A stretch of 35,572 bases of DNA from Candidatus Nanoarchaeia archaeon. GTDB lineage: Archaea; Nanobdellota; Nanobdellia; Pacearchaeales; GW2011-AR1. Below are positions 26,072 through 31,511 of the stretch, one piece after another; position 1 is the stretch's first letter; each line of letters begins with the position of its first letter. The stretch is from positions 418,986 through 454,557 of the forward strand of contig JAQTST010000001.1 in the NCBI GenBank assembly GCA_028711165.1, read 5' to 3'. The position numbers were made by a program, and so were the translations under genes. The notes beneath the pieces were generated by a model that saw nothing but the letters and a program-made list of their open reading frames with translations, searched no databases and had not been told where the DNA came from.

Positions 26072-26839
26072 ATGACAAGTGAAATAATCCCAAGAGATAG
26101 AATACCCCAAGAAGCATTGAGATTAATTAATGAAATTTCCGGGATTAATGCAGTTATTCCGACGATGGAAGAGGACCCAAGTATTATCGAAGGGTATTTT
26201 GAAATAGAAAGAAAAAAGATTACAACATTAGGGGAATTATACAACTATAAAAATGGTTTAGAGAATGCATTGAGAAATTATTCTGCAAACCCAAGAGTCC
26301 AAGGTTATCTCGAAGAGTTGGATTATTCTAAAGAGGTAGGAAAGTTAAATCTCATAGTATCTAAGTTAGAACGAGAGTCTGCTCTCGGCGGAAAGATTTT
26401 GAAAGATGTTTGGAATAAATGTTTTGATAATGGTTTTAACATGGATTATCAGGATGACACAGGAGAATTACTGGGGGAGAAAGAATCTTCTTTAAGAATA
26501 TCTCTGTATGGAGATATAGATATTAAAAAAGTCAGTATAAGATATAATATTAAGGGGGTTAGCCCAAGCATAGTTTTAAAACAAAATAAACCAAAATTTA
26601 TTGAGAAAATTAAAGGTAAAAAATCAGGAGAGATAACTGCAGATGTGTATAAAATGGTAGATGATTGTAAGATGGGTTATCAAAAGGGAATTTCTTTAGA
26701 GAGAGTTATTAATGTGATAGACAGGTGTATTTTAGAAAATGGTTTTTATTCGGGAGGACTTAAACAATTTAGAAAAATTATTTTGAATCTCCCAAGTATT
26801 ATGAATAAATATTTAGAGGATAAGTTAGGGGAAAGATGA
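26072..26839 (+). CDS. uncharacterised protein (255 aa), gene 1 of a four-gene cluster
   Basis: ORF preceded by strong Shine-Dalgarno AGGGGGAGGA. Confidence 0.7.
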   Translation: MTSEIIPRDRIPQEALRLINEISGINAVIPTMEEDPSIIEGYFEIERKKITTLGELYNYKNGLENALRNYSANPRVQGYLEELDYSKEVGKLNLIVSKLERESALGGKILKDVWNKCFDNGFNMDYQDDTGELLGEKESSLRISLYGDIDIKKVSIRYNIKGVSPSIVLKQNKPKFIEKIKGKKSGEITADVYKMVDDCKMGYQKGISLERVINVIDRCILENGFYSGGLKQFRKIILNLPSIMNKYLEDKLGER

Positions 26840-27375
26840 CAAATAGATATTACAAAAACTTTGAAAATTTGTTAGATGATTTCATGAAAGGAAGGCCTGA
26901 AGAGTTGGATAAAGTTGTTGAAGAAACAACTAATAAAATAAGAGGACGTTCTATTGGGGAAGTTCTTTCTCTTGGAAAAGAATATTTAGAGAATAATAAT
27001 TATATGGGAGCTATAACCTCGTTTAATGAAGTTAAGAAAGATAAGAAGACAAAATATTTAGGAGAATTATACAATTATCTTGTATTTGTTATTATCAATT
27101 CAAGGGTAGACAAGGATTCTGTTCCTCAGGATTTTAGACAAGAAGTAGATAGTCTTGTCTTGGAGAAAATAATTTATTGCATGATGGAATCGACGAGAAT
27201 GTATGCTGAAAAAGAAATTCCTAAAGAGGAACTTTTTTCTATTGAATTTTTTATAGACAGAATACAATTCAGAGATATGACAATAAAAGACAGAACAGAA
27301 TTTAACAGAATTTATAACAAGTTCAAAGAATATGCTCTTGATGTTTTTACCGAAGATAAAGATGGAAACAAATGA
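26836..27375 (+). CDS. uncharacterised protein (179 aa), gene 2 of the cluster
   Basis: ATGA overlap with gene 1. Confidence 0.7.
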   Translation: MTNRYYKNFENLLDDFMKGRPEELDKVVEETTNKIRGRSIGEVLSLGKEYLENNNYMGAITSFNEVKKDKKTKYLGELYNYLVFVIINSRVDKDSVPQDFRQEVDSLVLEKIIYCMMESTRMYAEKEIPKEELFSIEFFIDRIQFRDMTIKDRTEFNRIYNKFKEYALDVFTEDKDGNK

Positions 27376-28093
27376 TATTAGTGCAAAAGATTTGAAATTG
27401 ATGACAGATTATTTCAGCCTTAAAGCTGTAATGCCTTATCTTTCTGATGAGAAAGCAGTTAAAGATTATCTTGAAACTCAGAAACTGGACATTCCTCAGG
27501 AGCAGTTTAAAGAATATTTTTCAAGTTTAAAGAAAGAAGTCAGTTATCTTATTGAATATAATAAAGAAGCAAGAGATTTTTACCTGAGACTTGAGAACCC
27601 GAAATCGGTTGATGAGAAAATTGAAGATTTATTTTCTTACAAGAATAAAAATAATTTGGAGGAGAAATTTACAGGTGTATTAAAAGATACTCATAATGCT
27701 GTTATGAAAACAAATTTTAATCTTTACAGTATGGCAGATATAAGCGTCAGCAAAATTAAAGATAATTACTGGGATGTTGCTAAAATAGAATTATATTCTT
27801 ATATGGGAAGATTCAATACTATTTTTACGTTAAAAAAATCCATCTTCGAACCAAAAGTAATATTAAAAACTTATCTTGGAGAGAACATTAATGAAAGAGT
27901 GAATAAAGGTTCTATAAAAGATCTTTTTGATATGTATTGGAAATCTCTTGTCAGTGAAGGACAGGGAATGGCGGGGAGGCAAATTAAGAGAATTATTGAT
28001 TTAGAAGGAGAGGTTGAACTCCATTTGTCGAGGAGGAAAAATAATATAATAGATATTTTTGAGGGAAATAATGGGAAGGAAAAACAGGAATAA
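27362..28093 (+). CDS. uncharacterised protein (about 243 aa), gene 3 of the cluster, possible divergent paralog of gene 1
   Basis: ATG 27362 overlaps gene 2 end; N-terminal similarity to gene 1 (LKAVMPYLSDEKAVKDYLE / INAVIPTMEEDPSIIEGYFE). Confidence 0.7.
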   Translation: METNDISAKDLKLMTDYFSLKAVMPYLSDEKAVKDYLETQKLDIPQEQFKEYFSSLKKEVSYLIEYNKEARDFYLRLENPKSVDEKIEDLFSYKNKNNLEEKFTGVLKDTHNAVMKTNFNLYSMADISVSKIKDNYWDVAKIELYSYMGRFNTIFTLKKSIFEPKVILKTYLGENINERVNKGSIKDLFDMYWKSLVSEGQGMAGRQIKRIIDLEGEVELHLSRRKNNIIDIFEGNNGKEKQE

Positions 28094-28655
28094 AAAAATT
28101 ATAATGTTTGAAGGGTATAAACTTCCGAAAATTGAAAAAGGGTTTGAAATTGTGTATGATTATAAATTTGAAGAGAGGGGAATTTATCCGAGTTTCAAGA
28201 TTTTATATGACGCACCAAAACTTTTGATGGAAAGCGATGAAAAAAGATTAAAGAAATGCATTTATGATATCTTATTTGAATTAACTAATGGGGAATATAA
28301 AGAGATTAAAAAAATAATAGATACAAGGAGTAAAAAAATTGAATCTGAAAATGATACTGCGATGGGAATATTTGACAACAGATATGACAGGAAAATAGAC
28401 AAACATTTATTCTACAAGATAAGTTTAGATGACAAAGTCACATTAGAAATTGAAGATTACAAACCGAAGAGAATTGACAAATTTTCCAAAAAGGAAAAGA
28501 AAACTTATTATTTCGAAGACAGCAAATTGAATGAAGTAATTGACAAGTTTAGGTTCAATCCGAATAATATCTCAGTTTTTGTCGCGAGGCAGATTGAATT
28601 TGGCGGGGACAGATTATTTGAAGAAATTTATGGTTTGCTTGGCGGGGAAATTTAA
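28071..28655 (+). CDS. uncharacterised protein (about 194 aa), gene 4 of the cluster
   Basis: ATG 28071 with upstream GAGGG; overlaps the end of gene 3; convergent with the SMC-like gene. Confidence 0.7.
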   Translation: MGRKNRNKKIIMFEGYKLPKIEKGFEIVYDYKFEERGIYPSFKILYDAPKLLMESDEKRLKKCIYDILFELTNGEYKEIKKIIDTRSKKIESENDTAMGIFDNRYDRKIDKHLFYKISLDDKVTLEIEDYKPKRIDKFSKKEKKTYYFEDSKLNEVIDKFRFNPNNISVFVARQIEFGGDRLFEEIYGLLGGEI

Positions 28656-31511
28656 TTACATCTTCAAACTTATTATCTTACTGATTCCGTCGTGCATGCT
28701 GATTCCGTAGAGATTTGTGGCGTTTGCGATGACTTCATCATTGTGGGAGATAACTATGTATTGCCCTCTCTGCATATATTTTTTCAAAAGTTCTGCAAGG
28801 CGCTCGGAGTTTCTCTTGTCAAGTGCAGCGTCGATTTCGTCGAGGATATAAAAATAATACGGCTTTAATTCCTGAATTGCAAAAATCAGCGAAAGAGCAA
28901 CCAAAGTTTGTTCTCCTCCTGAAAGAGATTTGACATCGAAATATTTTCCGTGTCCTGTTTTCACGATTATATTAACTCCGCCGTTGAATGGCTCTTTCTT
29001 GTCTTCAAGTTCAAGATAGACGTGCCCTTTCTGGCTGAGCTGGGAGAAGTTTCTCGAGAATATTTCATTCACAGAATTAAGCGTCTGCAAAAATGTTTTT
29101 TTCTTTTTCACGTCAATCTCGTGGATTATTTTTAAAATTCCTTCTTTTTCTTTTGCGATGATTTCTGTTTTTTCTTTTATTGAATCGTATTCATTTTTGA
29201 TTGAGTCATAAACTTCAAGCGAGCGGAGATTTACATTTCCTATCTGCGAGAGAAGTTCCTGAGTTTTTGCGAGTTTTTCTGTGAGGAAATTTCTATTTGT
29301 TTTTATTATCTCAACGTCGGGGAAATCAAGCATTTCTGTTTCGAGATTTTCAATTTCTGCGTTTATTCTTGCGATATCAATCTTTAGGTTGTTTAATTCC
29401 TGTTCAAAATTATAGACGATATTCTGCTTTTTTGAGATTTCAATTTCGTTGTCTCTGATTTTTCTCTGGAGAGAATCACGTTCAGAAATCATCTTCTGGA
29501 ATTTTTCAACAAGTTCGCTTTCCTGTTTTTTCTTTTTCTCGAGCAACTCATTTTTTTCTTTTATTTTCTTTTTTATCTCGACAAGTTCTGAGCTCAAATC
29601 TTCCTCTTCCCTCGACAATTGTTTAAAAGAAATTTTTCCCCTTTCAAGTTCCCTCTGTTTAAAGGAAATTTCTGAATCCATATTCTCCTGACTTCTCAGG
29701 GAAATTTCCTGAACTTCAATTTTCAGCGTTTCATATTTTTGCTCAATGTTTGAATTTTCATCAAAAGAGTTTTCGAGATTCTTTTCTCTTTTCAAAAGTT
29801 CTGACAGTTCTCCTTTAAGATAATCAATTTTTTCCTGAACAGTTTTTATCTGATTCTGCTTTTCATGAATATTCGAAAGTTTTGCCAAATCAGAATTTCC
29901 TCTTGAAATCTCAGAGGTTATTTCTTCTATTTCCTGATTCAAAAGAGATTTTTTCTGGAGAATATCTTTGAGTTCTCTGTCAGAATTTTCTATCTCTTTG
30001 TTCAGGGAAGTTATCTTCTGGTGAATTTCTGAATGCATAGAATCGATGTGCTCTTTTGTAATCGTGCTCTTGCAGAGAGGGCAAATATCCATCTTTGAAA
30101 TTTTTTCAACCAGTTTTTTCTGCTTGTCAATTTCATATTCATTTGCTCCTGAAAGTTTTTCCAAACTGATTTCTTTTTTGGAAAGATTATCGAGAAGATT
30201 TTTCTTTTCTGCAATCGCCATTTTTAGAGAATCAATTTTCTCCTGCGTTGTTTTTGGATTAGACAATTCCTGAGAAATTGATTTTACCTGCTTCAGCAAA
30301 AACTCGGATTCATTTATGTAAGAGTTCAGCGTTGTTTTTTTGTCCTGAATTCTCTCTTTTAATGATTTAAGTTCAGATTTCAAAGTGTAGAATTTTTTTC
30401 TCTGCTCTTCGAGTTTTTCAAGCTCCTGTTTTTTAGATTCTATCTCTTTTTGATTTTTTGCCGTCGACAAAGGCTTTTGCAAGTCTTTCATACCCAAGTC
30501 AAGATTTCTCAGAGATTCCTGAAGTTCCTGCTTTTCTTTTGAGATTGAAGAAATTTTATTTTCATAATTTTCAAGACGAACATTCATGCCTGCAAGTTCT
30601 GCCCTGATATTTGCAATTTCCTGATTAAGTCTTTCCTGCTCCAGTCCTGTCGATTTTTGGATTGTTGAGTTTATTGTTGATATTTTTGATTCAAGATTTT
30701 CTATAAGGGCTCTTAGTTCAGAAATTGATTTTTTTTCTTTTTCTATCTCCTTGTTTTTCTGGGAAATTTTTGAGTTAACCTCGTCGGAAATTTTTTTCTT
30801 TTGGTTTATGTCAGAATAAATAATGCTGGCTTTGAATTTTTTCACGTCGGATTCGAGTTTTTTGAACTTCAGTGCCTGCTGTCTTTCTTTTTCAAGATTG
30901 TTAAGATAAATTGTTCTCTCTCTCAGAATCGCCAAAACTTCTTTTAACTTCTCTTCTGTTTTTTCAAGTTCAGAAAGAGATTTTTCTTTTCGCATTTCGT
31001 AGATGGAAATTCCTGAGACTTCCTCGATGACTTTTCTTCTTTCTTCCGGCTGCATTCTTGCAAAATTCTGGATTTCCCCCTGAAGAACAATATTAAATCC
31101 GTTCGGGTCTATTCCTCCCTGTGCCAGCAATGACAAGACTTCCTGTCTTGTGCTGACAGCGTCGTTAATTTTGTAAATACTCTGTCCATTTCTTCGGACA
31201 ATTCTTTTTACAGAAATTTCATTTTTGTCGATAGAAAAAATTCCGTCGGAGTTGTCAAGAACCATTTCAACCATTGCCTCTTTTGCCGGAGCTGCTGCCT
31301 TACTTCCAAGGAAAATTAAGTTTCCTGCTTTTGCTGCACGCATAGATTTTATAGACAATCTTCCGAGAACAAAACAGAGCGCGTCAGAAACATTGCTTTT
31401 CCCGCTTCCGTTTGCACCGACGATAACATTAATTCCCGGAGATAATGGAATTTCTGTTTTCCTTACAAAACTCTTGAATCCATACATCACTAATTTTTTA
31501 ATGTACATCAT
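28656..31511 (-). CDS. smc: SMC-type chromosome ATPase with a central Rad50-like CPxC zinc hook
   Basis: SMC N-terminus (YGFKSFVRKTEIPLSPGINVIVGANGSGKSNVSDALCFVLG), SMC C-terminus (SLSGGEQTLVALSLIFAIQELKPYYFYILDEIDAALDKRNSERL), coiled coil with CPLC at residues 477-480 of 951. Confidence 0.92.
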   Translation of the reverse strand: MMYIKKLVMYGFKSFVRKTEIPLSPGINVIVGANGSGKSNVSDALCFVLGRLSIKSMRAAKAGNLIFLGSKAAAPAKEAMVEMVLDNSDGIFSIDKNEISVKRIVRRNGQSIYKINDAVSTRQEVLSLLAQGGIDPNGFNIVLQGEIQNFARMQPEERRKVIEEVSGISIYEMRKEKSLSELEKTEEKLKEVLAILRERTIYLNNLEKERQQALKFKKLESDVKKFKASIIYSDINQKKKISDEVNSKISQKNKEIEKEKKSISELRALIENLESKISTINSTIQKSTGLEQERLNQEIANIRAELAGMNVRLENYENKISSISKEKQELQESLRNLDLGMKDLQKPLSTAKNQKEIESKKQELEKLEEQRKKFYTLKSELKSLKERIQDKKTTLNSYINESEFLLKQVKSISQELSNPKTTQEKIDSLKMAIAEKKNLLDNLSKKEISLEKLSGANEYEIDKQKKLVEKISKMDICPLCKSTITKEHIDSMHSEIHQKITSLNKEIENSDRELKDILQKKSLLNQEIEEITSEISRGNSDLAKLSNIHEKQNQIKTVQEKIDYLKGELSELLKREKNLENSFDENSNIEQKYETLKIEVQEISLRSQENMDSEISFKQRELERGKISFKQLSREEEDLSSELVEIKKKIKEKNELLEKKKKQESELVEKFQKMISERDSLQRKIRDNEIEISKKQNIVYNFEQELNNLKIDIARINAEIENLETEMLDFPDVEIIKTNRNFLTEKLAKTQELLSQIGNVNLRSLEVYDSIKNEYDSIKEKTEIIAKEKEGILKIIHEIDVKKKKTFLQTLNSVNEIFSRNFSQLSQKGHVYLELEDKKEPFNGGVNIIVKTGHGKYFDVKSLSGGEQTLVALSLIFAIQELKPYYFYILDEIDAALDKRNSERLAELLKKYMQRGQYIVISHNDEVIANATNLYGISMHDGISKIISLKM

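What the first reader, a model, noticed from the sequence alone, without database searches (positions are those of the whole stretch)
28656..31511. SMC-type ATPase with a Rad50-like zinc hook at the exact centre instead of a hinge
Both ATPase ends read as SMC: GxNGSGKSNVSDALCFVLG at the N-terminus and LSGGEQTLVALSLIFAIQ...FYILDEIDAALD at the C-terminus. The middle has no globular hinge. It is coiled coil with a single CPLC motif at residues 477-480 of 951, almost exactly the midpoint, where Rad50 carries its CPxC zinc hook. The chain is shorter than typical hinge-bearing SMCs. This suggests a hinge-to-hook swap, with metal-dependent apex dimerisation in what may be the organism's main SMC. Other archaeal SMC-superfamily proteins with unusual apices exist, so novelty needs a family survey.
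Basis: partly seen in the sequence, partly recalled or inferred. Interest (0 to 1): 0.85.

Follow-up and report, generated by a model that had tools for sequence, protein, structure and literature searches.

The report
Archaeal condensin SMC with Rad50 hook
A whole order of tiny archaea (Candidatus Pacearchaeota) carries a chromosome-organising SMC protein whose normal hinge joint is gone and replaced by what looks like the zinc-clasp tip of the DNA-repair protein Rad50, a swap that, as far as I could find, has so far been seen only when made in the laboratory.

Summary
Confirmed and extended. The minus-strand ORF 28656-31511 (951 aa) is a condensin-type SMC ATPase of a Ca. Pacearchaeota archaeon. 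It has no hinge; its exact midpoint carries CPLC (477-480). Both cysteines are present in 116/116 orthologue rows, against a mean arm conservation of 52%. No SMC_hinge was found in any sampled member of the order, while 200/280 genomes of the class have one. Head domains of the order form one clade (100/98), sister to hinge-bearing Woesearchaeota SMCs and far from Rad50.

The protein is a mosaic. Residues 1 to ~346 and ~609 to 951 match hinge SMC in register; residues ~354-602 match Rad50 230-474 collinearly (hhalign 99.5%), which hinge-SMC slices never do. An apex profile finds the P. furiosus Rad50 hook first in the whole PDB (3e-10). The genome also has ScpA, ScpB and a separate Mre11-Rad50, and no second SMC was found. 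This is a natural equivalent of the engineered B. subtilis Smc(Zh) (PMC5344682). Some sister families carry a third apex, with neither hinge nor hook. Zinc binding and dimerisation are inferred, not tested.

The parts
28656..31511 (-). smc gene, 951 aa hook-type SMC ATPase (only SMC found in the genome)
30465..31511 (-). residues 1-349: N-terminal ATPase head and proximal arm, matching hinge-bearing Woesearchaeota SMC in register
31392..31418 (-). Walker A GANGSGKSN, residues 32-40 (site where several relatives carry an intein)
29706..30452 (-). residues 354-602: apex module collinear with Rad50 230-474 (distal arms plus hook)
30072..30083 (-). CPLC zinc-hook motif, residues 477-480; both Cys in 116/116 orthologue rows
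28656..29684 (-). residues 610-951 and stop: C-terminal proximal arm and ATPase head (SMC type)
28908..28925 (-). ABC signature LSGGEQ, residues 863-868
28830..28853 (-). Walker B FYILDEID, residues 887-894

Best explanation
This is the condensin-type SMC (Smc of Smc-ScpAB) of a Ca. Pacearchaeota archaeon in which the distal arms and hinge were replaced, in an ancestor within the order, by the distal arms and zinc hook of a Rad50. Shown: SMC heads and proximal arms, Rad50-like apex, strictly conserved CPxC at the tip, no hinge, ScpA/ScpB and separate Mre11-Rad50 in the same genome. Inferred: two SMC chains dimerise at the apex by four cysteines holding one Zn2+, the heads engage with ATP and are bridged by ScpA-ScpB, and the resulting ring entraps or translocates DNA as other condensins do, with the hook serving as the dimerisation joint.
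For: Heads: best PDB hits are Pyrococcus SMC (3e-103) against 5e-13 for Rad50; NCBIfam SMC_prok_A 533 bits against ASRP 140 and Rad50 117; the order's SMCs form one clade 100/98, sister to hinge SMCs of Woesearchaeota. Apex: profile search of the PDB gives the P. furiosus Rad50 hook 6zff 3.2e-10 and 1l8d 5.5e-10, next hit 0.003; AF2 of the apex (pLDDT 94.5) is helix - 13-residue loop holding CPLC - helix; Foldseek's top three are Rad50 hooks. Mosaic: slices 170-349 and 620-829 match hinge SMC in register (79-98.6%), slices 440-589 match Rad50 in register (75-97%) and not SMC; whole module 99.5%, E=2.5e-22, collinear; controls at most 33%. Conservation 116/116. Partners: ScpA in 44/53, ScpB in 50/53, Rad50 in 50/53 relatives. 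Precedent: engineered Smc(Zh) supports normal growth of B. subtilis on rich medium (PMC5344682).
Against: No experiment; no dimer or zinc modelled (the tool folds one chain). The Pfam hook hit of this single protein is below its cut-off and the Foldseek E-values are not significant (0.03). Coiled coils inflate profile comparisons, although the controls were low. The genome is 88.6% complete, so absence of a second SMC in this one genome is not proof; the same absence of a hinge across the order is stronger.
Confidence: 0.88

Rival explanations
1. It is a divergent Rad50/SbcC or a member of the archaea-specific SMC-related proteins (ASRP: ClsN, Sph), families that carry a zinc hook anyway.
For: Central CPxC; ASRP and Rad50 NCBIfam models do match (140 and 117 bits); ASRP are known to carry the hook (PMC9389158).
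Against: Both are far below their cut-offs (300; 700-1000) while SMC_prok_A/B give 533/531; a very long branch separates it from Rad50; a proper Mre11-Rad50 pair sits elsewhere in the genome; heads are sister to hinge SMC. ASRP sequences were not put in the tree.
Confidence: 0.04
2. The hook arose de novo (convergence) inside an SMC that had lost its hinge, without any Rad50 sequence being transferred.
For: A hook is short; hinge-less hookless SMCs exist in the same order and the family f7 that branches first is hookless, so a bare hairpin intermediate is plausible.
Against: Similarity to Rad50 extends over about 250 residues in register on both sides of the hook, including arm pieces without the hook (488-606 alone 96.6%; 346-470 alone 90.4%); hinge-SMC and short-form arms show nothing like it.
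Confidence: 0.15
3. The central CPLC is a structural or redox site, not a dimerisation hook, and the protein dimerises elsewhere or works otherwise, as the hookless sister forms may do.
For: Sister families f4 (part), f6 and f7 have SMCs with neither hinge nor CxxC, so a metal apex is dispensable in the order.
Against: The motif sits at the tip of the predicted hairpin, matches the Rad50 hook by sequence and is among the most conserved spots of the arms; in Rad50 two such cysteines per chain hold one Zn only when two chains join (established knowledge of the Rad50 hook).
Confidence: 0.08
4. Assembly chimera or artefact joining an smc and a rad50 gene.
For: Metagenome-assembled genome.
Against: The same architecture occurs in about a hundred genomes, and the genome keeps a complete separate rad50.
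Confidence: 0.005

Closest known systems
Canonical archaeal/bacterial SMC of Smc-ScpAB (TIGR02169, TIGR02168)
   Same: Heads, proximal arms, ScpA and ScpB in the genome, single SMC, phylogenetic position
   Different: Hinge PF06470 and distal arms absent; Rad50-like distal arms with CPxC hook instead; scores below the curated cut-offs of the full-length models
Rad50/SbcC zinc hook (PF04423; PDB 1l8d, 6zff)
   Same: Hook sequence and predicted hairpin, about 250 residues of apex in register
   Different: Heads are SMC; a separate Rad50 next to mre11 exists in the genome
Engineered B. subtilis Smc(Zh), Smc hinge replaced by P. furiosus Rad50 hook (Burmann et al. 2017, PMC5344682)
   Same: Same architecture: condensin heads and arms with a Rad50 hook as apex; the engineered protein supports normal growth on rich medium
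   Different: Made in the laboratory; the natural form also carries Rad50-like distal arms and is fixed across much of an archaeal order
ASRP family: coalescin ClsN, Sph (PMC9389158)
   Same: Archaeal SMC-superfamily protein with a zinc hook
   Different: ASRP form a clade outside SMC in that paper, and their NCBIfam cut-off is not met here
Hinge-less oceanic actinobacterial SMC (PMC12153180)
   Same: SMC head protein without hinge
   Different: Those lack the CXXC; bacterial; closer in idea to the short hookless forms seen here in families f4/f6/f7
Lamassu LmuB (PMC10586767)
   Same: SMC-like ATPase, often with a zinc hook
   Different: Rad50-like, about 650 aa, part of a defence system; here only modest similarity to the LmuB models

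Membership tests
SMC (condensin-type, Smc-ScpAB) | SMC-type N and C ATPase heads with Walker A, signature, Walker B | tested here: met
SMC (condensin-type, Smc-ScpAB) | Head domains fall inside the SMC clade | tested here: met
   one clade 100/98, sister to Woesearchaeota hinge SMC
SMC (condensin-type, Smc-ScpAB) | Central SMC_hinge dimerisation domain | tested here: not met
   No PF06470 in the protein or in any sampled genome of the order
SMC (condensin-type, Smc-ScpAB) | Curated score cut-off of TIGR02169/TIGR02168 | tested here: not met
   533 of 729 and 531 of 567 bits, as expected with the hinge missing; a hinge SMC of the class scores 728.5 and 599
SMC (condensin-type, Smc-ScpAB) | Kleisin ScpA and KITE ScpB in the genome | tested here: met
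   (presence only; physical binding not testable)
Rad50 | Rad50-type heads | tested here: not met
[quoted passage not shown]
   (sequence and predicted fold; zinc not tested)
Rad50 | Gene next to mre11 | tested here: not met
   mre11 is adjacent to the other, true rad50; physical association not testable
ASRP (ClsN/Sph) | NCBIfam NF045487 cut-off 300 bits | tested here: not met
   139.7 bits
ASRP (ClsN/Sph) | Branches with ClsN/Sph in a head tree | not tested
   no ClsN/Sph sequences were in the tree
Zinc-hook dimer | Zn-dependent dimerisation | not testable with these tools
   only single-chain prediction possible

The most novel reading that the evidence does not exclude
A natural SMC-Rad50 chimera: in an ancestor within Ca. 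Pacearchaeota the apex of a Rad50, probably the cell's own (distal arms and zinc hook, about 250 residues), replaced the distal arms and hinge of the only condensin SMC, perhaps more than once (the two hook subtypes each resemble the order's Rad50 more than each other), and in other lineages of the order the apex is instead a small helical cap with neither hinge nor hook. The SMC apex is thus an exchangeable module in nature.
Probability: 0.75. Interest if true: 0.87.

Novelty: new variant of a known kind. Interest (0 to 1): 0.83.

Why it matters
A current review separates SMC (hinge, kleisin, KITE) from Rad50 (zinc hook, Mre11) (PMC10586767). This order breaks that rule: hook plus kleisin and KITE. 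The hinge is often given specific roles in DNA binding and ring opening; an order whose only SMC lacks a hinge suggests that those roles are dispensable or can be supplied by a hook, as the engineered Smc(Zh) of B. subtilis suggested. It also gives ready-made hinge, hook and hookless variants on homologous heads and arms for testing what the apex contributes.

Tried and rejected
Rad50 or ASRP membership. Cryptic hinge missed by Pfam: rejected, as apex slices match Rad50 and the AF2 model is a plain hairpin. Defence protein: LmuB and other PADLOC models match modestly, and Pfam showed no defence gene among the neighbours scanned. Assembly chimera. Other orders of the class with a hook: the 19 class genomes outside the order without a hinge hit have no SMC match, or only partial or weak ones. 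Aenigmatarchaeota short SMCs (about 820 aa) looked hingeless by length, but the one read in full, L102, still has a hinge-like centre by eye. The donor tree of the apex was unresolved, with long branches joining. One script picked wrong hinge boundaries for some sequences, so its hinge-flank comparison is not used; replace it. Three of 53 relatives and 5 of 180 order genomes gave no SMC match; put down to incompleteness, not followed up.

Full report
What is there. The ORF lies on the minus strand (28656-31511), 951 aa. It has SMC-type Walker A, signature and Walker B motifs; SMC_N E=7e-48, no SMC_hinge, Rad50_zn_hook at 468-507 E=0.01. The best solved relatives are Pyrococcus SMC heads. The only CxxC is CPLC at 477-480, the exact midpoint.

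Organism and genome. The closest named relatives in GTDB genomes are Candidatus Pacearchaeota. The window's genome is 0.64 Mb, 88.6% complete. One SMC was found in it, besides an Mre11-Rad50 pair with its own CPTC hook, ScpA (286 aa) and ScpB (180 aa). So the hook protein is the condensin SMC and Rad50 is separate.

Distribution. 175 of 180 genomes of the order have a match; in the window's own family the full-length copies are about 950-1040 aa, or about 1490 with an intein. No SMC_hinge in 49 order genomes against 4 of 4 outgroups of the class; 200 of 280 class genomes have a hinge and none of those is from this order. The 19 class genomes outside the order without a hinge hit have no SMC match, or only partial or weak ones, mostly at contig ends. 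The hinge loss is therefore confined to this order as far as sampled.

Conservation. 80 further orthologues were fetched. In 116 aligned hook SMCs (a few are duplicates between collections), Cys477 and Cys480 are 100%, Pro478 99%, His488 97%, while the arms average 52%. None of the hinge SMCs examined has a CxxC near its middle.

Family. With Rad50 as outgroup, SMC and Rad50 are separated by a very long branch. Without it, 35 SMCs of the order form one clade (100/98), sister to eight hinge-bearing Woesearchaeota SMCs (100/98). NCBIfam: SMC 533, ASRP 140 (cut-off 300), Rad50 117 bits.

Apex. A profile of 45 apexes searched against the whole PDB puts the P. furiosus Rad50 hook first and second (3.2e-10, 5.5e-10); the next hit is 0.003. 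40 of 45 members hit Pfam Rad50_zn_hook. AF2 (pLDDT 94.5) gives helix 27-76, a loop with CPLC, helix 90-163 in the 164-aa fragment; Foldseek's top three are Rad50 hooks, though with E about 0.03. A 27-residue hook core alone matches the Pacearchaeal Rad50 hook at 98%; hook core against Rad50 arm gives 0.6-1.4%.

Mosaic. Sixty-residue slices of the hook-SMC profile match hinge SMC in register at 170-349 and 620-829 (79-98.6%), and Rad50 in register at 440-589 (offset about 128; 75-97%), where they do not match SMC. Slices of hinge SMC and of the short forms do not match Rad50 (maximum 33% and 14%); a reversed-profile null reaches 20%. As one piece, 346-606 matches Rad50 at 99.5%, E=2.5e-22, collinear 354-602 with 230-474. 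All three SMC forms share the proximal arm up to about 346 and from about 609. The region between is about 475 aa in the hinge form, 260 aa in the hook form and 105 aa in the short form: an exchangeable apex.

Origin. Each hook subtype (window's family; families f2/f4/f8) scores higher with the order's Rad50s of the f4/f6/f8 type (174, 166) than with the other subtype (110) or with Woesearchaeota Rad50 (95, 58). This suggests a local Rad50 donor and perhaps repeated transfer or gene conversion; the apex tree is too weak to decide, and unequal rates could also produce this pattern.

Third form. Families f6, f7 and part of f4 have about 780-810 aa SMCs with neither hinge nor CxxC. f7 branches first; the f4 short forms nest inside hook lineages, so loss of a hook there is the simplest reading. 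AF2 of one (pLDDT 73, modest) shows two extra helices capping the arm.

Literature. Burmann et al. made this swap in B. subtilis and it supported normal growth on rich medium (PMC5344682); Tatebe et al. did the reverse in fission yeast Rad50 (PMC6969161). Hinge-less marine actinobacterial SMCs without CXXC are reported (PMC12153180). No open-access paper found describes a natural hook in a kleisin-type SMC; subscription papers and preprints were not searchable, so priority is not certain.

Mechanism. Shown: architecture, conservation, presence of partners, mosaic. Inferred: Zn-mediated apex dimerisation, ring with ScpA-ScpB, condensin function.

Noticed in passing
L033:182-2401; also L013, L017, L023, L026, L027: Several relatives carry a ~500-aa insertion in the Walker A motif of this same SMC, giving ORFs of about 1490 aa; in L033, the one scanned, it is an intein (Intein_splicing 9e-36, LAGLIDADG). 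Hinge SMCs of the class with ORFs of 1650-1690 aa may have it too.
   Followed up: partly
L035-L042: SMCs of about 780-810 aa with neither hinge nor hook in families f4 (part), f6, f7; apex predicted as a small helical cap. A second, unexplained way of doing without a hinge.
   Followed up: partly
G187, G199, G208, G215 and other f13 genomes: All nine sampled genomes of family f13 in the same class, several 90-95% complete, show no SMC match to this query at all: possible loss of SMC.
   Followed up: no
window 26072-28655 (+): Four ORFs of 179-255 aa in a row beside smc, with no convincing Pfam match.
   Followed up: no
L098, L100, L102: Aenigmatarchaeota SMCs are only about 820 aa; L102 still has a hinge-like centre, so its arms are very short.
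   Followed up: partly
L274 (G030 Rad50): Rad50 of family f2 has CYTC instead of CPxC in its hook.
   Followed up: no
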